From the NCBI GenBank assembly GCA_013399305.1, contig VXAI01000277.1, forward strand, positions 1 through 64,000: 64,000 nt of DNA. Direction: 5' to 3'. Positions within the stretch are counted from its first letter, which is position 1; each line of letters opens with the position of its first letter. This document shows positions 1,600 through 64,000 of this stretch, piece after piece. Under the pieces are notes generated by a model. That model ran no database searches. It was not told where the DNA came from and saw nothing but the letters and a program-made list of their open reading frames with translations. Source of the DNA: Rostratula benghalensis. Lineage: Eukaryota > Chordata > Aves > Charadriiformes > Rostratulidae. A program made the position numbers and the translations under genes.

Positions 1600-4500
1600 G
1601 AAGCCAGCACCTTCAAATGGATTTTTTCCATGTTTTATTTCTTTAAATGTATTACCTCCTAAAGCCTGATGAAGTAAGAATTTGAGTAACTATTTTTGAA
1701 AAGTAGAATTCACTGATAAGGTTAAGATAATCAGTTCAGATTCTTATCCTCTCAATTTAACTACTTTGGCTTATTTAAATAGGGGGAAAAAGCAACTTGC
1801 AATTCAACAAGAACTGCTTCTCCAGAGGTTTGCACTTATGTTAGTTTTGGACTGGGTTCAAGCAGTGAACTTTTATCAGGTGCCTTTATCCTGTCAGCAC
1901 TTCCATGCTCTGAGTTCTCATTTTGACTTTTCAGCCCATATGAGCCTGCTGAAACAGTCCTTGTCACAACAGTTGTGTCCAAATATGCAGAGCTAGCTTT
2001 TCAGTCAGTTCACCTGGGGATGCTCAGGACTGCTTTCCAGCCTCAGCTGCCTCACTTGTGCTTGCATTTTGATGCCAAGTACCTATGGAAAAATTCCGAT
2101 GCCATGCTGCTTCCTAAAGAAATCACCTCAGTCGGATGCCTAGACTTCAAGAAGTGTATGAAATTCTTCTTTCCAGATGAAAATCCCATGCCTTTGTGGT
2201 TTTGTGTGGGATTAAACCCCTTTACTCTCCTTGCTCTCACCTTCCTGATAGAGACTGCTGCTTTTGTTACCATTTTCCCTCCCTTTTCCCCTTCTTTTTG
2301 TCTGTCTCTACATTGTCTTTATTTACTAACTGATACTCCCATCCTGGTCTACCAAGCGACAATGTGTTCACATTCATAGGTCCCTGTAAGACCCATTTTC
2401 CCTGTAATGCCCGCAAAAGGAGCGTGCATCTAAATGAAAGCTTTAGGTGCTTCCTTCGTTTGGGCTTTCCATATGCCTGTGTGCTCCAGTCTTGTCTTTG
2501 AACTTTTTAGTCTCTAGAGCTGTGTCCTACTTTTTATGTCTTGGGAAAAGTTGAAAGGAGTAAGTGATTAATAATAAAATTTTTAAAGCCATAATGAAAG
2601 GGTATAACTCCCGTGATGAAAAACCCCTTTCCTCTCATTTGACTCAGAAGTTCCCGACAAGGACTGATGAAACACACTAGCGAAAGGATGTCTGGAGCTA
2701 AGATGTCACCATGACCCACGAGACTCTTCACTAGCAACATCCAACAGCCTCCCATATGGGAGAGGGGAATGCTCCAAAACTGACCCCTCCTCCTTGTGAT
2801 TCCCAGTGGCAATTCAGTTTGCCTGCCTGTTCTGTGCCTTGGGAGACACTTGCACAGCCCCAAGATCCCTTTGTTCTTTCTGTCCAGTTTCCACTGATGA
2901 GCAACAGATCGTGGAGGCTGCAGGGGTCTGGCCATGGTAACTCAGTTGGTCTGTTCCAGGACAAGCAGCAGAGTTGGACTCCCCTTGACTCATGAATCTT
3001 ACTAATGGGCAATCAATGACACGATGCTGCCATTGATGTGCAAGCCACAGAAGCAAGCTGGAATGGAAGAAAGGAAAGTAAAAAAAAAAAAAAGAAAAGA
3101 AAGAAAAGAAAAGAGAGGACTTCCAGCTTGTCTCAGGGAGGCATCCTACTCCAAATTAGGCAAGCAGAGCGGCTCCAGGCTCGTAGGTGGGCATGCAGTA
3201 CCTGTGCACAGCAGAGTCCAGGTTGCAAAAGCCACTGAAGGATGGTTTGCAGTGAAGGCACCAAAGCTGCAGTGCTGCCCAGCCCCACAAGGATTGTTTT
3301 TATCACAAAACTGCATGCACCGTGCCCAAAGCCTGTGCCAGCAGCGTTTGCATCTGGCCCAACTATGAATAACTTCAACTAAGGAAAGGTGATAAGTGAA
3401 ATCTCAACACCTAGAATTCATATATCTGCAGCCACATTTAGCAATGCCTCAGTTGATTAGATGCTACCTGGCTCTCTGAGCACCCACAAACTCAGCGCCA
3501 CAGACAATCCCAAAGCTTTAGTTTCAAGCACTTAATCATGAACAGTGTGGCTGAAACATTGGAAACAGAATGGTGGCTTGTACCTTGTCTTTCTGAATAC
3601 AGGGGCTCCCCTGGCCCCGGCAGTGTAGTCGTCACAGATGGGGCGAAGAAACAATGTCTTCTCACCAGCCTATCAAGGACTGCTTTAGCTGCTTCAGCTG
3701 CTTTTAGTTTTCAGCTGTTGTCCATGCAGCCCATGTTTTCTCATTCCCAGGGTTGCTTCCAAAGCCGGCAGGCAGCTCGGAGAGGGGGAGGTAAGCGGTG
3801 AGATGGTTTCTCATGGGAGACAGGAAGGAGGACAGTCTCTCTGCTGCGTGTTTACAAACAGAAAGGCTGGTTTGGAATTTCAAAATAGCTATGGAAACTT
3901 TTATTTCAGGTTACATCTAAAAAACCTCCAACACTCTGAGGGTCAGGCTTTATTCTCAGTAAAATTTCTTTCACAATCATTAAAACCATGGGCTGTTTGC
4001 ACTCTTGAGAAAAAAATCTGCTGTAGCTACTTGTGTAAATTTGTGCAAATAAGTGAAGATTTGCTTCACTTGGGGGGTCTGTGTCTTGTGCAGTGGAAGA
4101 GAGGGACCAGTGGGGAGGAGATGAGCATGCCATCCCTGCAGCCTTCTGCACCTCATGGAGCCACCTCACCCGGACAGCACAGACGTGGGAGAAACAGCAC
4201 TGAATGCTGGACGAGAGTTAGCAGCATCAAATATTTTTTTATTGGCAAGCTCAATATGATTCAGCCAGCTGTAGGAGCATTGCAGAAAAGCCTCATGGAA
4301 CAGATCCCACCCTGCTGTTGTGTTTCTGCAGGCTTTTGGGGCTGACATCAGCATTTGATGAGCTGATCCATCACCCAGGGTTTATCCCCAGAGAAACAGG
4401 GAACTAACTTGCCACGCAGCACTAACCGCTAATTTTAATGACAGCTAGCTCACCATGGCATGAACAAAATGAATTATTTCATTTTCTGGGATCTACTGAC

Positions 4501-17110: not shown

Positions 17111-17230
17111 TTCTTCTGAGGGAAAGGATGAAAGATGCTGACCTGCATGTGGCAGAGTTTGGTCACATCACATCGCACAGGTGAGCCTGCCATGTGGGTA
17201 CTGTGGTGGTGATGGCAGTGCCGTAGCCAT

Positions 17231-17277
17231 CAAGAACAAAAAACAGTAAAAAAAAGCAGCCCTGTTTTTTGTTCTTG
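17231..17277. repeat. Perfect 16-bp inverted repeat at CR1 5' junction
   Basis: Left arm caagaacaaaaaacag (17231-17246) and right arm ctgttttttgttcttg (17262-17277) are exact reverse complements, separated by a 15-base A-rich spacer. The right arm overlaps the first bases assignable to the CR1 fragment, so the repeat straddles the insertion boundary. Confidence 0.9.
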
Positions 17278-17818
17278 CTCTACTCTGCACTGGTGAGGCC
17301 ACAAATGGAATACTGCATCCAGTTGTGGGCTCCCCAGTTCAAAAGAAACAGGGAACTACTGGAGAGAGTCCAGAGTAGAGCAACAAAGACAATTAAGGGA
17401 TTGGAGCACCTCCCTTACAAGGAAAGGCTGAGAGAGATGGGGCTTTTTAGCCTTCAGAAGAAAAGGCTGAGGGGACACCTTATCTATGTTTACAAGTTCC
17501 TAATGGGTGGGTTGAAGGAGGATGGAGCCGGGCTCTTTTCAGTGGTTTCCAGCAATAGGACAAGGGGTGAAGGGTACAAGCTGGAACTTAGGAAGTTCCA
17601 TTCAAATATGAGGAAAAACTTCATTCTGGTGAGAGTGACAGAGCCCTGGAACAGCCTACCCAGGGAGGTTGCGGAGTCCCCTTCTCTGGAAACTTTCAAG
17701 ACCCCCCTGGATGCAGTCCCTAGTAATGTGCTCTGGGCAATCCTACTTTAGCAGAGGAGTTGGCCTAGATGATCTCTAGACATCCCTTCCAACTCTGAAA
17801 TTCCATGATTCCATGATG
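17266..17818 (+). mobile_element. CR1 LINE, 5'-truncated 3' end (about 550 bp)
   Basis: Matches the familiar avian CR1 3' sequence from the motif 'ctggtgaggccac' through 'ggctccccagttcaaaag', 'ggaaaggctgagagag', 'aggatggagcc' and 'gatgatctctaga' to a terminal 'attccatgattccatga' repeat. CR1 ends in a short octamer-like repeat instead of poly-A, and most copies are 5'-truncated, as here. The reverse-transcriptase domain is absent; only the ORF2 C-terminal part and the 3' UTR remain. The 5' edge coincides with one arm of a perfect inverted repeat (17231-17277). Confidence 0.95.
17269..17751 (+). pseudogene. CR1 ORF2 C-terminal coding remnant (160 codons, still open)
   Basis: The reading frame encodes the C-terminal tail of the CR1 ORF2 polyprotein downstream of the reverse transcriptase: [71 protein letters not shown] and REVAESPSLETFKT. 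It ends at TAG 17749-17751, about 70 bp before the element's 3' end, where CR1 ORF2 normally stops. No frameshift or internal stop is visible. It has no promoter, no start codon of its own and no catalytic domain, so it is a transposon relic and not a host gene. Confidence 0.9.
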
Positions 17819-33589: not shown

Positions 33590-36500
33590 GAAACTGTTGG
33601 CAGAATTTTCACTTGCTCTTCCATAAAAAGAAAAGATTATAAATTTTCCCATTAAAATGTTATGGAATAAAATCCCTTCCTTTTTACCATGCTTAGTTTC
33701 CAGCAAAAAAATAACATAATATTACCCAGTACATTCCTGAAATAGGCACTAGATTCTTGGATACTTCAGTAGCTTTCAGCTAAATTATCTGATCCTGAAT
33801 TTATGTAATTGATCAACAATATTTCTTTTCTCAGATCATCAAATTTATTCAAAACTGCAAGTCTTGCAGTTGAAAAAATATAAAAACAGAGAGCAACAGC
33901 AAACAATATGACAGTTAGCAATGCTAAAAATCTCATGCATTTTGAGTGCAGCTCCTGGTTTCTGAAAGTCTGTCTGAGAATGCCTTCCCTGGCCCTTGGC
34001 AGGATTTACTAGGTCATCAAAACATGCTATACCGTGCTAGCCAATATCACAGTCAGAATAGAATTTAATTTAATCTCCAGAAGCAAGCCTCATGAAGCTG
34101 TGTTTATTTGGGTCTTGCAGCTTGTTAAGTGTGGGTGAGTCTGGAGCAAGGCACAAGGAGATGATGAGGGATGCTGGCACACCAGGACCCTGCTCCAGCC
34201 TGAAAGCCAGACGATGCATAAGCTTTTTCCCTTCCACATCAGTTCCTGCAGCTGATCATTTAAAAAGATTTAAACTGATTTTTTGTCCTCTGAACTACCC
34301 AAGAACACCAGGTTATGGGATTATTCTTGTCATGAGTGTGTTTCTTATGTCTTATTACACACACGCATGCACACAAAGATCATGGATGCCCAAATGGCCT
34401 TATTCATAACAAGGGCATCACATTGCAAAGACTAGTTAGACCCAGATGATTTTTTTTTAAATTCAGTTGCCCTTCTGTGCCTCTCTCTCGGGTGCTCACA
34501 TGAATTAAGTCCCTAATCTTTTGAGCTTTTCCCACCATATGTTATTAGAGCAATTGGTTTTGCAGGGATATCTTTGATATCATTAAAATAACTCATAGTT
34601 GGATCTTACTGACTGAAATGGGATGTTAGTTACTTCATCATACTTCCTTGACCCAAATCCTTCAAAACACATAGGCAGAAGAAGCAGTCCATTCTCCGAC
34701 ACACTTTCCTTTCCAAAACTGTTTGTTAGTTGGGGGAAGAACAGCAAGTCACACATGCTATGAAAATGAGATGGAGGGGATGCCACATCATCAGGCCTGC
34801 TGACCACCACCACAGGATCCACCCTTGCCACCCAGACCCATTGATCCTTCATCTCCCTTCCCACTCCTCATTCTTGCCTATGCCAGACCAATGTCAGGAA
34901 CATGGGATAGGGACAGGCACCTTAGCTAACAGACAGCTTTGCATGACCAGGAATAAAAAGGTTTTGGCAAACAAAGTTTAAGAGAAACTATGAAGTTGCA
35001 CTTTGTTCCAGGGGGTTTGTAGTTCCTCACCTCTGGCCCTGTTTAACACTATAATTACTCTCTTAAATTTCTCTTTATTTAACGTCACCCAGCCTGTCTT
35101 CTTCTGTTACCATTTATTTAACTGAAACAGGCAGAGACTGATATTGAAGGCAGGCATGGAGCCAGCATGTTAAAATCTGCTATTAATTTAAGGTTCTGGG
35201 GCTAGTTTCCTAGCCATTATCACATTTCAGAGAAAATGAATTTTCTTTCTCTCTGTCAAATGATGGCTGATCTAGATCTAATTAGGGTCAGTTTCACCTA
35301 AAGATGAGTCATTTACATTCTGAATACATGGCTTCCAAATTATTGTTTTGGTTTAAAATCAGACATGAGCAAATCCATGCATACCTTTCGTAGATGGCAC
35401 TGAAGATAAAAATAAGTGGATTTTCTTCTACAAATACCTTTCCCAGCAAAAGGATGGCAGCTGGATGATGAAAAAAAGATATAGTTCAGGATAAGGACAA
35501 ATAAGATTAAGGGTAATTGCAGAACGTAGCTTTCTGAAGTGCAGGAAAAGTGGCCTTTATGAGACTTACTGGGAAAAAAAAAAAAAAAANNNNNNNNNNN
35601 NNNNNNNNNNNNNNNNNNNNNNNNNNNNNNNNNNNNNNNNNNNNNNNNNNNNNNNNNNNNNNNNNNNNNNNNNNNNNNNNNNNNNNNNNNNNNNNNNNNN
35701 NNNNNNNNNNNNNNNNNNNNNNNNNNNNNNNNNNNNNNNNNNNNNNNNNNNNNNNNNNNNNNNNNNNNNNNNNNNNNNNNNNNNNNNNNNNNNNGGGGGG
35801 AGAGAAAAGATTCTTTAATACAACACTGAAATTCTTTAGCAGTATTGGCAAATTCTAAACCCAGTTAGGAAAATAACTCTTCTTGCTAAATATGCCAAAA
35901 TCCCATCCCCTATTTAGGTGGGAGTCATTTGTAAAATCAGTATGTATTATAGAAAAACTAAACGAGCAAAACTCAATAACACAGCATCTTGTAGCCTTAC
36001 TTTGCCAGGAAAGCGTTGAAAACATGAATTTCTGTCATCACTGTCGCTACACCTCTTTTTGGCCTACATTCACTACTACTTCCACTCTATGTTTCACTGG
36101 AAAAACAAGAATTAGCATTGGAGACACATCTCTTCTGTCCTCCACTCCAAAACCTGGCCCATTACCAGGACAATGCCAAAGCATTCAGCTGAGGCTAATG
36201 GAGACAGCTGAGACATAAGCCCTTTGGTCTAAGGAAATAATAAGGTCTCTGAAGTACACCATGAAATTAAATCTTATGCATCTTTTTATGAGATCCAATA
36301 ATATCTTCTTATTTTGTGTTTTAAATAACTTTGCCACTAGTGGAACTATTACTTTGTCATTTCCTTCCTCAGAGGAGGTCTTATCAGTAAATTCACAAGT
36401 AAATCCTCATGAGACGTGTAGATGACACCAATTTGCTGCTGTTCAGTGGGATTAAGCAAAGCAGACTTCTGGTATCAGCAAGGGGAAGCCGAGTTATTTA

Positions 36501-53632: not shown

Positions 53633-56600
53633 AGCAGTATTAGTCTACCAGATAAAACCCGCTGTGTATGAACTTGAGAAAATTCCCTTCAGATATAAAC
53701 TAAAATGCCTTATTTACCCCCTACATAAAAATTATATGAGTTCAGACAAGCACCAACATTCCTTCCACAACTAAAGCATTGTTCTTAAAAGATAAGGACA
53801 TGGATGAAACAGACCGTTGTGTGTGACTTGGAAAAAGCCTGACACTGCATACAAAATGTCAAGGTATTTATAGAAAATAAAATTCAAGGCAAAGCCAAAG
53901 TATGGTTGTCAACATAGATCATTTCCCAGGAACAAGGTTCAGTGCCATTGACATTATATGCTGTTGAAGTCAGTTCCATCCCCCAGATGGTGCATGAAGG
54001 AGAGTTGTTATTGGCTAGAAAAATGTTACTTCTGGGTGAGGGGTGCAATTACTCTTTTTTGCAAGGGATTCACTGCTTACATGCTGGTACCTTGGAAATG
54101 CACCAAGGCTTTGGTGTTGCCCCATTGCAGTATGGTGCCAAGCAGGTCCCTGGCTGATGCCAGCCTCTGGCTCCTGGGTGCCATGCACTGCTCCCAGGTG
54201 ACATGGAAGAACACTTCCTAAACCACAAACTGCCCGCTGACACACGTCTGGCTGACAGAGGCCTACATGTCCCTTGCATCTCCCTGTGGCATCCATGCCT
54301 TGGAACTGGCTGCAGGGGACTGCCTGGGTGGGGACAACATGCTTCTGTGGGGATTGTTGGGGATGCAGACCCCCCACTCTGGGCAGGGCTCTGCTGCTGT
54401 GTGCACAGGCACCCACCACCAGCCTTTCTGCGCCCCGGGCTGAGTTAGCAACTTCTTCAAAGCCAGGGCTGCTGCTTCAGGAGGTTTCATCAGATGCAGG
54501 CATTAGTCTGACTGACTTCAAAGACCCACTGGAAATGTCACGACATGGTACATATTGTAGGCTACCATTCCCATCAGGTGTGCTGCGACACTACCTAGCC
54601 AGCTTCAAAGCAGGCGAGACTTGCTACCATATGTTTTCAAGCACACTGCCACATTTAGAGATGCTGATGTCATGAGACTGAAAAAAAAAGAGAAAGGTGA
54701 GGAAGATTTGGGTCTTGATATCTGATGCACCTGGAAATGAGCTTTCTCTTCCCCAAAGTTGTAGTGTGCCTGTTTCTCTCCAGGCTTTCCTCAGAGAGCG
54801 TAACCAGTGTCCTCATAACTCAGCTGACCCTCAGCTGGATACAGAATGGCAATGGAGATGCGCTGAAATCTGAGTCCTCAGAAAAGTTGTGTAGCTGAGA
54901 TGTTTCCACCAAGCTGGCATGGCTCTAGAAGCAAAGGACAGCCTATCCCTGACGCCTTCCAGCCGGCTGGCCATCTCTGGTGGGAACTCTGCGCTGGATT
55001 GCGGTACTAGTTCCTGTCAAAGGGACATACCTCGTCCTCAGTTAGACAGACACAAAGGCTCCCATCAGTACCCCAGGGACAAGCTCTGCTCCACAGTGTC
55101 TGTGCACTGCTGCTGCTGCACAGAGTGGGAAAAATATTCCCATAGCGTGTGGAAGACTGCTCAAAGCAACCACGGAGATACATTTCATCGTAATACATAA
55201 ATTAAGGGAAGAGCTTAGAGTTCATAAATAGTCTAATTAACCTAAATCCTTTATTTTGCTTTAGCTGTAAGAAGCTCTGGATTATTAGCTAGTTTTTCGT
55301 GCCAAACAAAATCTTTTTTGCTGCTTCATTACTGACCCAGCAAAGTTAAGTGGTGTCATTTTTATTGAAAAAACATGGTCAAGCGTGTCACAAACTGAGA
55401 AGCAGTAATGTAATTTGCTACTGCTCTGCTTCAAGCACTGAGAGAACACAAACAAGTTTAGCTAAAAAATGAAGACTGCCAAAAGCTATGTTTCTGTTCT
55501 GTATTGGCTGTGTTTTGGAGATGAAAGAGGAAGAATACTGTATTTTGAAACTAGAAAGACTTACAAATATAAATCAAAATCTGCCTGCTCTGCAGCATTT
55601 AGTTAGTACTTTCCTGAATCTGTTGTTATTGTGCTGGCTATATCATGGGCCCAATCTTTTCATTTTGTTTATATTTTCCTAATGCAAATTGTGACTCCTA
55701 CCCTGGGAACATGACAAAATCTTTCTACACAAATGCAAATAAGACAGGAAGCTCATGGTTTCCACAAAGCAGCTTTGACTCTTACTAGATGTGATAATTT
55801 TGTTACCAGGGTCCCAGACATCATAGTGAGCCAGACTAATCAGCCATGAGGGTTCCTGTCCACCCATGGAAAGTGGCTCATCTGAACAAGGTCCAGTTTT
55901 CTATTCGTCCTCCCAGGCCAAGATATGCAGCTTTTCCTTGCCGAGCATGAGTTTCACAGAAGCAGATAAGTGATCTCAATCTCTGCCTTCGTTCTACCAC
56001 TGGCAAGGTCCAAAATAGAACTCCTGATCAGTTGTCTTCAGCCGACCCCAAGAGGCGCATCAGCCTGTGCAATTGACTGCTCAGCCCCTCTAATCCTGCT
56101 GTGCCTGCACAGCATTTGCAGACACCCCTGTGCAGCAGCAAGCTTGTGGGCAGCAGCAACCTCCACAAGGCAAACCAGTGGAGTGTTTACCCAACTTCTT
56201 GGGTGGGTTTTACATTCAGCAGAATATTGTGCTTTCCCAGCCATGCTTCTCCCACGTCCTGAGCTGCCTGGTTTCAAACACAGCAAGGTTTTTCTGCTCC
56301 ATTCAGCAAAGGAGGTAGCCACTGCAGTTTGACAAAGCCTTTCCAAGGAGCACATTTCTTTGTGAAATTTGCTGGTGTCCCTAAGTGCAAGATCACTCTT
56401 TTAAATAAGACCTTCAGATCCTAAAGTTGTCTAATTACATGCCTTCATCACGTTAACTTTCAGCTCCTGATGTCTTGTCAATTCTATGCCAAAAGATGCT
56501 ACAAAGCAGACAAGTCAAAGCTACACTGTGGCTGATCACCTGGTACCAGAGGAAAACACATTCAGATAAGATATGCGCCATTGTAGTGAAGGCATGGGTG

Positions 56601-57995: not shown

Positions 57996-58455
57996 AGAAG
58001 GAAGGAAGGAAGGAAGGAAGGAAGGAAGGAAGGAAGGAAGNNNNNNNNNNNNNNNNNNNNNNNNNNNNNNNNNNNNNNNNNNNNNNNNNNNNNNNNNNNN
58101 NNNNNNNNNNNNNNNNNNNNNNNNNNNNNNNNNNNNNNNNNNNNNNNNNNNNNNNNNNNNNNNNNNNNNNNNNNNNNNNNNNNNNNNNNNNNNNNNNNNN
58201 NNNNNNNNNNNNNNNNNNNNNNNNNNNNNNNNNNNNNNNNNNNNNNNNNNNNNNNNNNNNNNNNNNNNNNNNNNNNNNNNNNNNNNNNNNNNNNNNNNNN
58301 NNNNNNNNNNNNNNNNNNNNNNNNNNNNNNNNNNNNNNNNNNNNNNNNNNNNNNNNNNNNNNNNNNNNNNNNNNNNNNNNNNNNNNNNNNNNNNNNNNNN
58401 NNNNNNNNNNNNNNNNNNNNNNNNNNNNNNNNNNNNNNNNNNNNNNNNNNNNNGA

Positions 58456-58550: not shown

Positions 58551-61080
58551 CACATCTTTTGTCAGTTCATTCCCAGGCTGTTAAGTCATGGGGTTAGATT
58601 TGCGGTACTAGGCAGCTGACATCTCTGCAGCAGCAAAGATGAAAGTCAAACAAAATAATCCAAAGAAGTTCTTAACTGTGACTATTAAGTCCCAAAGGAT
58701 TTATCAGAGTTTACTTCTAGGAGAGACTTCGGCTGAAGTCCATTAAGCAAATTAAAAAGCAGAAGGAAAATAAACACCGATTAATGGAGATAGGAATTTT
58801 ATGAAGGAAAGGAAACAGCCAGAGACCTTGTGACAAAGCTCCTGGGTTGCTATTCAGGTTTTAAGGCCCCCAGACCTTATAAATGGAGGAGATTATTCTC
58901 TTCACATTGCCCTGCTGGTAGTCATAAAAGAGAGTTAATAGAATTTTTTTTCCCCCACTGAGAAGTCCTGTAGAAACTCAAGTAATAATAATCCATAATG
59001 TTTCAGTTCAGTGCGTGACATACAGCCATTTGTTCCTTTGTTTCCAGGCAGGGAATCTAGCTGTAAATCTTGTAGTGACACAGATATTGTACTGGCTCTG
59101 TGGCATTTTATCTCCTGCTGAAACTGAAACCCATCTGAGCGGCTTCCCACACAATTAGGGACTTGCACGTCAGAACAACCAGGCAGGATTTCTATATTTT
59201 TTACTTTGGCATCATGATTAATATTTAATCCAGAGGAGATATCACAGACATGTTTGAAACCTCATTTTGCTTGTTAAAAAATACTTTGAAACCAAGAAAA
59301 TGAGCTAGTTATGTCATTATGGAGCCCTGTTATTTATTATCTTTAGATTGTTTAAATTAAAGCAAATGCTCCTATAAGGGGGAGATTCCTTCTGCTGTTC
59401 CTCTTCTAAGTGATTTTCTAATTTTCATTGGGTTTACTATGCTGTCCGCTTTGATGCTCTGAGCAGTGTTCGTGGCCAAAAACAAAGAGGTACAAGAATG
59501 GTAAGAGACAAGTGAATAAAGACCTCCATCTTGCTGTGTTCAGCCATGCAGTGGTACCAGTCTGTGGGGCAGAAGTGGTTTTCATTGAAAGCTGGAGTTG
59601 CCAACAAGCCAGGAACAAGCACTAATCACTCTTGATGCATACAAAAAAACCCCTCTTCAGGTCCTTGCCACAAGCCTGAGGAAAACAGGCATGCGCATAT
59701 TTCTTTTTATTGTCTTGACTGGAAGACACTTTTGCTAATTTTCTCTGCAGCATCTAATCCAAAACAAGTATGTAATTAATCACTTGCTCATCAATTCAAC
59801 TGTGTGGCAATTTGTTTGCCACATACTCATCCCTGTAGAAATTAACAACATTTTGGACACATTTACTGGAATTTTGTTCATGGGATCCCACCTCTGCCTG
59901 GCTGGATGCACTAGAAACAGTTCTAATATTATTCTTGGTGAGAATGTGATATTTCTCTGTCTGTGCAAATATGAGCTTGAAACATAAAATATACTGCCGA
60001 CAGCAGGTATACTTGCAGGATTATTTTCAGGTGAAACAAAAAATGAACCCCAAAGGGCTGTCCCTGAAAAGCACAGCTACAATGCTCCCTGGCTGTGCTG
60101 GGTCCCTGTTCCCATGGCATGGGGCAGGGCTCACTGGGCTTCATCCCAGGTGACAGGGTGGAAAAGGTCCTGGAAGGGCAAGGATTTGCCAGAAGATGCT
60201 CATCCTAGGCCTGGCACTGAGCCCTGTTGCTGGAGGTACCGATTACTCTAGGTATACCTGTCTTTTTTTTATAGCAGCCCCTATTGCCATTGCCCACAGA
60301 GGATGATCACCAGGGGCAGCACCGGAGCTGCCCCTCGCCTTTGCCCCTTGCTTGCAGGGGTAAATGGTTCTGGTTGCATGGGCACCTGGGCATAATCCAC
60401 CAGGGATGAGGGACTGCACTGCATGACCAGAAAGCAAACCTCTGGCAGCTTTGGTAAAAGAGGGTGCAGAGGGATGAAAAAAGGAAGAAAGGAGGGATGA
60501 GAGAGAAATAGCCCCAAGCAAAGGATTTTAATTCTATTTGTTAAAGAACACATTTGAAGTCTTTCTTCAGATACACTCCTTGGACTTGTAGGATGTGACT
60601 CACTGCATGTGCCTGTCATGGTGTGAAAGGCTGATGTGCAAACTGGGACAAAGGGTCAGTGAGTTTGGGAACAGCAGTGAGGCCACTGCACATCACGGCT
60701 TCTACTCAGAATCTGACCAGCACCAGGGTAAGGGGCTGAGATGTCTGAGCAGCTAAGGCATGTAACCCTTCCCTTAGTGGGTTCTATTTGTTGGCTTGCC
60801 AGTTCCCATGGGACACCTGACCTTTCACCACTAATATAAGAAAACTGCAAAAGGGCAGTGCCTGAAGCTCTGTGTTTTCCATGTCTGCACCAATAAAACC
60901 TCTTTGTGGCCCAGGCTGTCCGGCTCAGCCACTGCATACGTGCATTCCTGCAGGCATGGGTGTGCACACCCCAACCGCAGGAGGGAGCAGCCTGGGGTCA
61001 CCACAGCCAGCCGTGTCACTACCTGCTGGGCAGCTGGCCTCGGATGCCTAACTGAGTTTTACTGGCTGCTTACACCTTGA
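58551..61080. other. No recognisable gene upstream of the lysozyme-like pseudogene
   Basis: 58.6-60.0 kb is AT-rich unique DNA; 60.0-61.1 kb is GC-richer. No start codon in frame with the pseudogene leader is present between the stop at 61078-61080 and the leader, and no clear promoter was seen. Confidence 0.55.
60313..60334. repeat. GC-rich 8-bp stem-loop
   Basis: ggggcagc (60313-60320) and gctgcccc (60327-60334) flank accgga. Confidence 0.8.
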
Positions 61081-61110: not shown

Positions 61111-61266
61111 GTGAGTACCAGCAGTCCTGCAGGGTCTCCCCTGCTGCTGCTGCTGGTCTTGCTGACTGTCATCACCAAAGTCAAGGTGTTCAGGCAGCAC
61201 AAGCTGGCTTACATGCCTCCAGGACGAGCGACTGGATGGCTATGGGGGCTACAGCCTTGCCAACCA
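61111..61266 (+). other. Lysozyme-like pseudogene, exon 1 (leader and mature residues 1-27)
   Basis: The frame is open from just after a stop at 61078-61080 but has no ATG. It encodes PLLLLLVLLTVITKV, a signal-peptide-like core, then mature residue 1 (Lys, 61183) in KVFRQHKLAYMPP. One extra base at about 61222 shifts the frame; after it DERLDGYGGYSLAN continues to residue 27 (61262-61264). Allowing for that base, spacing from residue 1 to residue 27 matches hen lysozyme without any other gap. Cys6 is His (61198-61200). The codon for Trp28, which is split by intron 1 in this family, has become CAC or part of it, and the donor reads like a damaged version (caagtt in place of gtaagt). Confidence 0.85.
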
Positions 61267-61371
61267 CAAGTTTCAGCCCCCTGTGTGCCCACAGCCTTTC
61301 CTTCCCAGCTGCTGCCATCACCATAGAAGGCAGCTGTGGCACAGATTGAGTGCTTTCTGCCCCTACCCAAG

Positions 61372-61524
61372 GGTCTTCATGACCTTTTACAAAAGCACCT
61401 TCAGAATGGCAGCTCAGAGCATCAAAGCGGATAGCAGTGCTGATTACAGCATCTTGCAGATCAGCAGCCAGCTATGCACATGACCACGGCCACTCAAATA
61501 ACTGCTGCAGGATGGCTTGCAGGG
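61372..61524 (+). other. Lysozyme-like pseudogene, exon 2 (residues 29-81, active-site region)
   Basis: An acceptor AG at 61370-61371 is followed by one base (end of codon 28) and VFMTFYKSTF, then DSSADYSILQISS, colinear with the lysozyme residues 29-60. Codon 35, catalytic Glu in active lysozymes, is AAA (61391-61393), one transition from GAA. Codon 52 is GAT (61442-61444), so catalytic Asp52 is kept. Cys30 is Phe. The frame runs into TGA at 61481-61483, but shifting frame at about 61476 restores HDHGHSNNCCRMAC, matching the region of Cys76 and Cys80. The exon then ends in AGG G followed by GTACCA, a plausible donor. The stop is therefore a product of a frameshift. Confidence 0.9.
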
Positions 61525-62236
61525 GTACCACAGCAGCGCTCCTCCAGAGCCAGCCCCAGGAACAGAGACAGGAGCCTGAGCCATCCCGCTCTGCCCAACT
61601 TCAACCTCTGGCCAAAATGGAGCTGCAGGCATACACGAGGACCAACCTGGGCAACTTGATGCTTGTGGTTGCAGGGAGTTGCTGGGTGTGTGGGTAGCCA
61701 TGTTGACTCCTGAGGCTGGGGAGTGAGAGGCCATGGCAGTTGCCAGAGGTGTTTCTCACAGGCACCTTAGCATCACTATAATCACTGCCTCCAGACCTCC
61801 AGGGTTTCTTTTTGCACCTCTGGGCCAGCTCCTTACCTTTTCCCCTTATCCATCCTTTCCTATCCTGGCATACTGGGAACTCCAGAGCTCTCTGGGTGTT
61901 TTGACTGTGGCTGGAAGACAGACCATCTTGATTTGGGTGGGTTGTGGTACGGGGCTGGATGAGATAAATGCATGCCCCTGGTTGTGGAGTCAATAGCTGA
62001 GGAAGCGATCACCCAAGGCTGTATTGCTGCCAGGCAGATCCAGGTCTTGGCTCAGGGTTTACCACTAGAGAGGAGCACCCAGGCAGAAATGGGAAGGGTT
62101 TTGCTATATCTGACCAGCAGACATCCTGCTATGTGATAAAATCCAAGGTCTAGGAGGTTCGGACTGGACCTCCTGTTCCTCTTCAGACCAAAACCTCCTT
62201 TCCAGATAGGCAGAAAAGCTCCCTAAGAGTGTTGGG

Positions 62237-62270
62237 GTTTTTTGCTTTTTTCTTTTTTTCTTTTTTTCCC
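62237..62270. repeat. Polypyrimidine tract
   Basis: T runs broken by C or G: ttttttgcttttttcttttt continuing as ttctttttttccc. It lies in intron 2 of the lysozyme-like pseudogene. Confidence 0.8.
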
Positions 62271-62500
62271 AGCAGAGCAAGCAGAAAGGCATTGAACTAT
62301 CATAACCATAGATGGGTCTGCCTCCCATTTTCCTCCCTCCTTCCATTTTTCTCTCTCTCACATGTCATTCCAGAGGGATCCAACCTCACACCAATGCCCA
62401 GGGGTGCCTGACTTCCCTTCCTGCACCCAGCAAGGAAACCTGCTCTGGGCTGGTGTCCTGTCTGTGAGTGAGGACAGGAGCTGTGCTTCTCTCCATGCAG

Positions 62501-62576
62501 ATCTGCTATCGAGTAATATAACTGATGACATCCATGCCCAAAGAATTGTGAGAAACCCACAAGGAATGAGCTCCTG
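62501..62576 (+). other. Lysozyme-like pseudogene, exon 3 (residues 82-107)
   Basis: A strong acceptor (ttctctccatgcag, ending at 62500) precedes AT CTG CTA. Joined to the final G of exon 2 it gives Asp82-Leu-Leu, so the splice phase is intact. The frame reads DLLSSNITDDIH, AQRIV and RNPQGMSS, matching family sequences such as human lysozyme ALLQDNIAD and RVVRDPQGI. There are 24 whole codons where 25 are expected; the missing one is the Cys94 codon between DDIH and AQRIV. The exon should end in TG of codon Trp108 followed by GT. Here TG (62575-62576) is followed by ATAAGG, consistent with a GT-to-AT donor mutation and producing an apparent TGA. Confidence 0.88.
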
Positions 62577-64000
62577 ATAAGGGGCTTTGGGGATTGTTTC
62601 TTTGGCAGGGCTCACATGTGTTTCTGAAGGGGCATGGTTGCCCTTTACCTGACTGTCACACAAAGGCAGCACAGCCACACCAAAGAGGAGGAAACACAAC
62701 TTCGGGGGACACAAACTTGCACAACTTCAGTCTCTGCAAAGCATCTCACAGAAGAGATTAGGGAGGATGGAGAAGACTAAAAAATGTTTCAGAAAAAACA
62801 TCTCAAGTGAAAAATAAATGGTCACTAAACAGCCCATCACCTAGTAGGTTGTCTGTCTTTTGCTTTCAAAGTCCTTGAAAGTGCTCCTTCCAGACTTTTT
62901 GCAGTCTTTTCTGTTAGCTGGAAGGACCTAGCAATTCTTCCCAGAGCATTTCAGAGAATTAATCACTGAAATATCCTGATGAATCTAGGTGACAGCCCTT
63001 GCTTGGTACAGTCCTGAACCATCCCTGGGATTCCAGGCTGCTGTATCATAGGAAGCTTGTAAAGGCAGAATAACCAACAGACAGAGAAAACACAAATGGG
63101 GGTAGAAGACAATTCCAACGATCATATTTATATGTGGTTGTCTGAAGTCCCAAGGCATTCTGTGTGAAAATAGTGGCTTTAACCGCTAAATCCTTAATAT
63201 GTTCCAAGTTGAGGGACAAGATTCTGCCTTCAAATTCCCCCCACCCCCTCCCTGCCTTTGCCGTTTTACTCATTAGCCATTTTTGCTTCCTGTGGTAGCT
63301 GCTGCGAAGCCTGGCTCACTGCAAAAGCAGCAGTGTTTCTGAGCAGAGTTGAGGTAAGTAATTTGTGTGGCATACAAGTGAATGGTCTCAGGGCCCCTGT
63401 GGTGAGCATTGCCGTTGCATGGTCTGCTGCACCCTCAACACACTGTGCTCAGCTGTGATGTACCAGCAGAAGAGGGACCCTTGCAGCGGCCAAAGGTGGC
63501 AGGGCCTGCCATTGCAATTCACTGTTCCTGGCCAGGACTCAGAGAGAGCTCAGGTGGCATCGAGGGACAGTGAAGATTGCACTCCTCAATACAAAACACT
63601 CAGCCGTATTGGAAGAGTCTGCAAGTCCTTCGCCAGGGCTAGTGATGGGAGGTGTCTCAGTGGGAAGAACCCGACAAAAGCACAGAGCCTGCTCATACTG
63701 GATGTCAGTTATACCAGTCTGTGACCTAAATGGTCTCTCTTTCCTTCCTCTGTCCTCAGGGAGGGCTGGGCAATGCACTGCAAGGGAAATGACATGTCTG
63801 AGTGGGCAGAAGGATGTGACCTGTGAGAAAGTCCCCAGCTCAGCTCTGCTGCGGCTGGTGGGGGCTGCCTCTCCCCTGCTGCAAGGGGAGAGCTTTCCTG
63901 TTGCTGCACAATACTTCTCAGTTAGTATTTGCAAACCCAAAGTATTCCACCATATCTGAAATAACTTTAACAGCATGGCATGTTTGGTTTTTTTTTAAAA
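62577..64000. other. No confident gene; expected site of missing lysozyme exon 4
   Basis: The last lysozyme exon (Trp108 to the C-terminus, with Cys115 and Cys127) should lie here. Two weak candidates were seen: a VSWKDL-encoding stretch at about 62918-62935 near a good acceptor, and an EAW-encoding stretch at about 63305-63313. Neither keeps the cysteine spacing. Frames at 63.3-63.98 kb have no recognisable domain. Confidence 0.5.

What the first reader, a model, noticed from the sequence alone, without database searches (positions are those of the whole stretch)
61111..62576. Unannotated C-type lysozyme family pseudogene with preserved intron positions
Three segments on the + strand match C-type lysozyme residues 1-27, 29-81 and 82-107 in order. 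The exon 2 end (G|GTACCA) and the exon 3 start (gcag|AT CTG) join in phase to give Asp-Leu-Leu. With one extra base removed, exon 1 has the same residue spacing as hen lysozyme over 27 positions. No single open frame spans it, so ORF-based annotation would miss it. The CRMAC-DLL stretch points towards the SPACA3/LYZL branch, so this could be a lost sperm lysozyme-like gene in this lineage.
Basis: partly seen in the sequence, partly recalled or inferred. Interest (0 to 1): 0.8.

Follow-up and report, generated by a model that had tools for sequence, protein, structure and literature searches.

The report
Dead lysozyme-like gene in a bird
A bird genome carries the decayed four-exon remains of a lysozyme-like gene that other birds and turtles appear to keep; it is a clear but ordinary case of gene loss, useful because an earlier survey credited birds with at most two genes of this family.

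Summary
The read-through protein matches the avian gene annotated "lysozyme C, milk isozyme-like / LYSC1 / LYZL1" (best Anhinga, 70% identity, E 6e-41). Intron places and phases are those of C-type lysozymes, and intron sequence is shared with a crane gene model. The gene looks dead: no start codon, frameshifts in exons 1 and 2, splice sites lost at both ends of intron 1 and at the intron 3 donor, three of eight cysteines gone, catalytic Glu35 now Lys. A whole-genome search with a penguin orthologue matched only this locus. The tree puts it with the other birds, next to turtle and tuatara "LYZL1", near SPACA3 but not inside it. Contig neighbours (a PKS, a Patched-family gene, MASTL, ACBD5) fit, from memory, the human chromosome that holds LYZL1/LYZL2, so LYZL1/2 orthology is preferred but unproven. 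Of 25 avian rows (of 53 named avian hits), 16 lack Glu35 or Asp52. A sperm role was not tested.

The parts
54919..55074 (+). possible 5' leader exon (MALEAKDSLSL...), as in gene models of Ciconia and Pterocles
   Evidence: tblastn: P0022 residues 1-24, 75% identity, E 1.6e-6; P0032 residues 1-47, 58%, E 4.9e-10; its splicing to exon 1 is inferred from those models
61132..61265 (+). exon 1: signal peptide and mature residues 1-28 (first base of codon 28); no in-frame ATG; one frameshift between about 61209 and 61217
   Evidence: tblastn; upstream stop at 61078 with no in-frame ATG between
61266..61370 (+). intron 1, 105 bp, reads AC at its start and AA at its end by alignment with relatives; the next AG lies one base on
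   Evidence: read-through translation homologous to the intron-retaining Grus model P0035 and to P0073
61371..61524 (+). exon 2: residues 28-82; Glu35 to Lys, Cys30 to Phe, Asp52 kept; frame broken between about 61471 and 61482
61525..62500 (+). intron 2, 976 bp, GT donor and AG acceptor kept
   Evidence: its start is homologous to read-through in P0035 and P0073
62501..62576 (+). exon 3: residues 82-108; Cys94 lost, one residue short
62577..63759 (+). intron 3, 1183 bp, starts with AT, AG acceptor kept
   Evidence: tblastn P0002, 86% identity over 21 residues, E 5.2e-10
63827..63956 (+). 3' flank shared with the C-terminal extension of the Falco model P0023
   Evidence: 63861-63956, 75% over 32 residues, E 5e-11

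Best explanation
This is a unitary (non-processed) pseudogene of a sauropsid lysozyme-like gene, annotated in other birds as LYSC1, LYZL1 or 'lysozyme C, milk isozyme-like'; it may well be the orthologue of mammalian LYZL1/2. The working gene would make a small secreted lysozyme-fold protein from four coding exons. Here it can hardly do so: start codon, reading frame, three splice sites, three of eight cysteines and one of two catalytic residues are gone. Shown: homology, exon structure, lesions, no second match with an orthologue query, place in the avian clade. Inferred: loss followed relaxed need for the enzyme, since relatives repeatedly lose catalytic residues; LYZL1/2 identity (about 0.5); a host related to Anhinga. 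The confidence below is for the pseudogene of the avian LYSC1/LYZL1-like gene.
For: Read-through hits 22 proteins at E <= 0.01, 70% to Anhinga. Four exons in order on one strand. Intron sequence shared with the Grus model P0035 and with P0073 from an unnamed contig. Lysozyme intron places and phases (rule in PMC3141428, passage). Avian clade 100/99; beside Anhinga 93/76. Window differs at 9 of 38 near-invariant avian sites; the worst of the 25 other rows, Podiceps, at 6 of 39. P0002 matches only here in 1.087 Gb. Neighbours: PKS domains and a Patched domain (Pfam), MASTL (5loh, E 3e-17), ACBD5 (3flv, E 5.6e-9).
Against: Exon 4, both intron 2 sites and Asp52 are intact, and an AG lies one base beyond the lost acceptor, so the loss may be fairly recent or another splice form might exist. 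No expression data and no DNA of relatives, so no dN/dS. The join with Anhinga is below the tool's star threshold. Paralogue order is unresolved with recalled human sequences. The Patched gene's first piece has no Pfam match and its name PTCHD3 is recalled; LYZL1 lies about 2 Mb from that block in human (recalled), so the synteny is of a block, not of next neighbours; BAMBI could not be placed (searches busy). The genome search scores only its best candidates, and a copy in an assembly gap is not excluded.
Confidence: 0.9

Rival explanations
1. It is a lost SPACA3 (sperm acrosome lysozyme-like) orthologue.
For: Same wider clade as SPACA3 (100/99); some bird models carry the name SPACA3 (P0010, P0012); in the second tree avian + turtle LYZL1 + SPACA3 as one clade is not rejected (p-AU 0.517).
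Against: A turtle SPACA3-like protein (P0106) pairs with mouse SPACA3 apart from the avian clade (100/94); window + both SPACA3 rows rejected, p-AU 0.0006; contig neighbours are not those I recall for SPACA3.
Confidence: 0.06
2. It is a dead duplicate of conventional LYZ or of the pigeon/hoatzin calcium-binding lysozyme.
For: All are C-type lysozymes; bird lyz genes form conventional and calcium-binding groups (PMC6487185, passages).
Against: Window + hen and pheasant LYZ rejected, p-AU 4.5e-5; the neighbours found are not CPSF6 or YEATS4, reported for LYZ (PMC3141428, passage). Pigeon and hoatzin sequences were not in the tree.
Confidence: 0.04
3. The gene is alive and the lesions are assembly errors or are bypassed by altered splicing.
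For: Exon 4, intron 2 splice sites and Asp52 are intact; the window is the start of a contig and has two N gaps elsewhere.
Against: Several kinds of lesion in 2.7 kb plus an excess of change at conserved sites (9 of 38); Cys6, Cys30 and Glu35 are changed by substitution, not by indel noise.
Confidence: 0.03

Closest known systems
Avian 'lysozyme C, milk isozyme-like' / LYSC1 / LYZL1 proteins (Anhinga P0001, Spheniscus P0002, Balearica P0005)
   Same: 70, 69 and 67% identity over 90-99% of the read-through; same clade
   Different: Annotated as coding; the window copy has no start codon, broken frames and lost splice sites
Turtle and tuatara lysozyme-like proteins P0029 (LYZL1) and P0046
   Same: Nearest group outside birds (91/79)
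   Different: Glu35 and Asp52 kept in both; P0029 is full length, P0046 is 122 residues
Mammalian LYZL1/LYZL2
   Same: Human genes are on chromosome 10 (PMC3141428 Table 1, passage), the chromosome that I recall for MASTL, ACBD5 and PTCHD3
   Different: Sequence tree does not resolve it (55/86 with a recalled sequence); BAMBI adjacency untested
SPACA3 (mouse, PDB 4yf2; turtle P0106)
   Same: Same wider branch
   Different: Its own pair in the tree; direct grouping with the window rejected
Mammalian LYSC1 milk (calcium-binding) lysozyme
   Same: Best solved-structure match is horse milk lysozyme
   Different: The four mammalian milk rows form their own clade outside the SPACA3/LYZL clade

Membership tests
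C-type lysozyme / alpha-lactalbumin family (PF00062) | sequence homology over most of the domain | tested here: met
   E 6.4e-41 to P0001, which carries PF00062; 3.6e-19 to 2eql. Single pieces do not pass Pfam's cut-off; the whole read-through was not run in Pfam
C-type lysozyme / alpha-lactalbumin family (PF00062) | four coding exons with introns at codons 28, 82 and 108 | tested here: met
   exon bounds and phases; rule of fixed intron places in PMC3141428 (passage); the codon numbers are recalled for hen lysozyme
C-type lysozyme / alpha-lactalbumin family (PF00062) | eight disulphide cysteines | tested here: not met
   5 of 8 kept; Cys6, Cys30, Cys94 lost. The alignment also put another residue at 64
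active lysozyme enzyme | Glu35 and Asp52 | tested here: not met
   Glu35 is Lys, Asp52 kept
avian LYSC1/LYZL1-like gene | inside the avian clade of the tree | tested here: met
   26 rows, 100/99
SPACA3 | groups with known SPACA3 | tested here: not met
   p-AU 0.0006
LYZ (conventional) | groups with hen and pheasant LYZ | tested here: not met
   p-AU 4.5e-5
mammalian LYZL1/2 orthologue | tree grouping with LYZL1/2 | tested here: inconclusive
   55/86 with one recalled human sequence
mammalian LYZL1/2 orthologue | next to BAMBI or Dnm1p17 (PMC3141428, section 9) | not tested
   search for PF06211 in the genome was busy at each try
unitary, unprocessed pseudogene | introns present, no intact copy elsewhere | tested here: met
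   introns; P0002 has 3 matches, all in this locus; gaps in the assembly not excluded

The most novel reading that the evidence does not exclude
Birds and turtles carry the orthologue of mammalian LYZL1/2 in a conserved chromosome 10p-like block, so this lysozyme-like gene predates the split of mammals and sauropsids; in birds it has been losing its catalytic residues in several lineages and has died in this one.
Probability: 0.5. Interest if true: 0.5.

Novelty: new member of a known kind. Interest (0 to 1): 0.35.

Why it matters
A 2011 survey found at most two lysozyme-like genes per bird genome and could not class any non-mammalian member except LYZ (PMC3141428, section 6); a 2016 paper calls it unclear why LYZL2 had not been found in reptiles or frogs (PMC5104373, passage). 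A gene shared by birds and turtles, with the four-exon structure, dead in one lineage and lying near genes of the LYZL1/2 chromosome, makes both points testable, and offers a natural series for watching a lysozyme lose its active site.

Tried and rejected
Pfam on single exon pieces: none passes the cut-off. A solved-structure search with 28 residues of exon 1 found nothing at E <= 10. Rfam at gathering thresholds: 0 matches in the window. Viral contigs: 8 stretches matched a pattern, none encodes a relative. A tree with recalled human LYZL2, LYZL4, LYZL6 and SPACA5 did not resolve the paralogues and warned of long branches. Own-genome searches with hen LYZ, turtle LYZ P0154 and turtle SPACA3 P0106 gave nothing; a cross-species positive control (P0029) did not complete, so I do not claim that LYZ or SPACA3 is missing. 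Family searches PF00062 and PF06211 did not complete. PMC3434135 on gamete genes (passages) shows nothing on a bird lysozyme-like gene.

Full report
What is there. The window is the first 64,000 bases of a 995,891-base contig (C495) of a 1.087-Gb assembly. Its ORFs include a CR1-like LINE fragment, read by eye. Between 61132 and 63826 on the + strand lie four lysozyme exons in order. A 5' leader-like stretch at 54919-55074 matches the N-termini of the Ciconia and Pterocles gene models; several mammalian LYZL genes are annotated with an additional 5' exon (PMC3141428, passage).

Is it more than chance? In tblastn, penguin P0002 gives E 6e-18 for exons 1-2, 7e-8 for exon 3 and 5e-10 for exon 4. 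The best value in 30 dinucleotide shuffles of the window, three queries each, was 0.036. The read-through (120 residues, exons 1-3) finds 22 proteins at E <= 0.01 among 38 candidates, each listed with PF00062 and led by Anhinga at 70% identity, and horse milk lysozyme as the best of 277 solved-structure sequences at E <= 0.01. Against: one weak minus-strand hit (P0060, E 0.001), and single pieces that do not pass Pfam's cut-off.

Why a pseudogene. No ATG lies in frame between the upstream stop at 61078 and the signal peptide, and two residues that the Ciconia model has just there are missing. The frame shifts in exon 1 and again in exon 2, where stops follow. By alignment with relatives intron 1 reads AC and AA at its ends and intron 3 starts with AT, while intron 2 keeps GT and AG. 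Cys6, Cys30 and Cys94 are gone; in hen lysozyme they belong to three different disulphide bonds (recalled). Glu35 is Lys. At sites where at least 95% of the other avian rows agree, the window differs at 9 of 38; the next worst of 25 rows, Podiceps, differs at 6 of 39, and five rows at none. Intron sequence is kept: the Grus gene model (P0035) and P0073, from an unnamed contig, read through intron 1 and the start of intron 2 and align with the window there. So this is the old gene in place, not a processed copy.

No other copy found. P0002 matched three places in the whole genome, exons 2, 3 and 4 of this locus, at E 1e-5 to 1.4e-4. Since these decayed exons rang, an intact copy should have rung better. 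The tool scores only its best candidates, and a copy in an assembly gap is not excluded.

Which gene. Of the 53 named avian proteins I chose 25 by hand, one per genus; the rest, many of them short, fused or second models and some from further genera such as owls, were left out. With 27 other vertebrate rows, three rows copied from solved structures and the window this makes a 56-row tree. The window is in the avian clade (26 rows, 100/99), beside Anhinga (93/76); tuatara and turtle LYZL1 are the next group (91/79); SPACA3 and another turtle group join at 100/99. Window with SPACA3 or with hen and pheasant LYZ is rejected (p-AU 0.0006 and 4.5e-5). With recalled human LYZL2, LYZL4, LYZL6 and SPACA5 the order is unresolved: LYZL2 joins the avian-turtle group at 55/86, while grouping that set with LYZL6, LYZL4 or SPACA3 is not rejected (p-AU 0.43, 0.45, 0.52). 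The window shares with Anhinga a Met directly before the AAQS motif; the other 24 avian rows have Thr there (20 by script, 4 by eye). So the bird is probably a relative of Anhinga (Suliformes); this is inference.

Neighbours. Downstream on the contig: polyketide synthase domains at 115.7-118.1 kb, with more by eye to 121.5 kb (- strand); a Patched-family gene (+), PF02460 E 1.6e-26 for the piece at 157.3-159.0 kb and no Pfam match for the piece at 151.0 kb, which together I take for PTCHD3 from memory; MASTL at 191 kb, 5loh E 3e-17; ACBD5 (-), 3flv E 5.6e-9 for one exon at 237.3-237.5 kb, other parts between 220 and 240 kb by eye. I recall MASTL, ACBD5 and PTCHD3 as one block of human 10p12; LYZL1 and LYZL2 are on human chromosome 10 at 29.6 and 30.9 Mb (PMC3141428 Table 1, passage). 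This favours LYZL1/2 over SPACA3 (chromosome 17, recalled). The neighbour that section 9 names for mammals, BAMBI, could not be tested.

A gene losing its active site. Among the 25 chosen avian rows, 7 lack Glu35 and 12 lack Asp52; 3 lack both and 16 of 25 lack at least one. The fewest changes on that 35-row tree are 7 for each site; the tree also holds the window, mouse SPACA3 and other turtle rows, so not each change is avian. The five palaeognath rows keep Glu35 and have Asn or Ser at 52. The turtle LYZL1 and tuatara rows keep both. Many bird models are partial or flagged low quality, so some of these may be pseudogenes too. This suggests loss of catalysis before loss of the gene; expression and dN/dS are needed.

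What is known. PMC3141428 (sections 6 and 9 and passages) reports at most two lysozyme-like genes in birds and says that, if the duplicates predate the mammal-reptile split, they must have been deleted from bird genomes. PMC5104373 (passages) says LYZL2 had not been found in reptiles or frogs, and that turtle and alligator SLLP1 (SPACA3) keep Glu35 and Asp52. PMC6487185 (passages) treats conventional and calcium-binding lyz in 48 bird genomes. In six searches (only the top rows of 23, 26 and 94 were listed) I recognised no paper that describes this avian gene; most subscription papers are not in the library.

Verdict. A real, well-supported lysozyme-like pseudogene, larger than reported, from the LYZL/SPACA3 branch, possibly LYZL1/2. 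Ordinary as a gene death; of moderate interest for lysozyme family history.

Noticed in passing
25 avian proteins among P0001-P0038: Catalytic residues of this lysozyme-like gene are lost repeatedly in birds: Glu35 in 7 of 25, Asp52 in 12 of 25, at least one in 16 of 25; the five palaeognath rows have Asn or Ser at 52.
   Followed up: partly
P0001 (Anhinga): The nearest relative's partial model stops after exon 3, has Arg at 35 and Tyr at Cys94, so it may be decaying too.
   Followed up: no
L009 (C495:114001-124000), 1715-4078 minus strand: A polyketide synthase gene lies about 52 kb downstream of the pseudogene.
   Followed up: partly
whole genome G000: Hen LYZ, turtle LYZ and turtle SPACA3 gave no match; without a positive control this does not show absence, but conventional LYZ in this bird deserves a look.
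   Followed up: partly
window 54919-55074: A 5' leader-like exon 6 kb upstream of exon 1, matching N-termini of stork and sandgrouse gene models.
   Followed up: partly
window 17227-17751: 3' part of a CR1-like LINE reverse transcriptase frame, read by eye; similar fragments elsewhere on the contig.
   Followed up: no
window 35590-35794 and 58041-58453: Runs of N; the second lies inside a purine-rich simple repeat.
   Followed up: no
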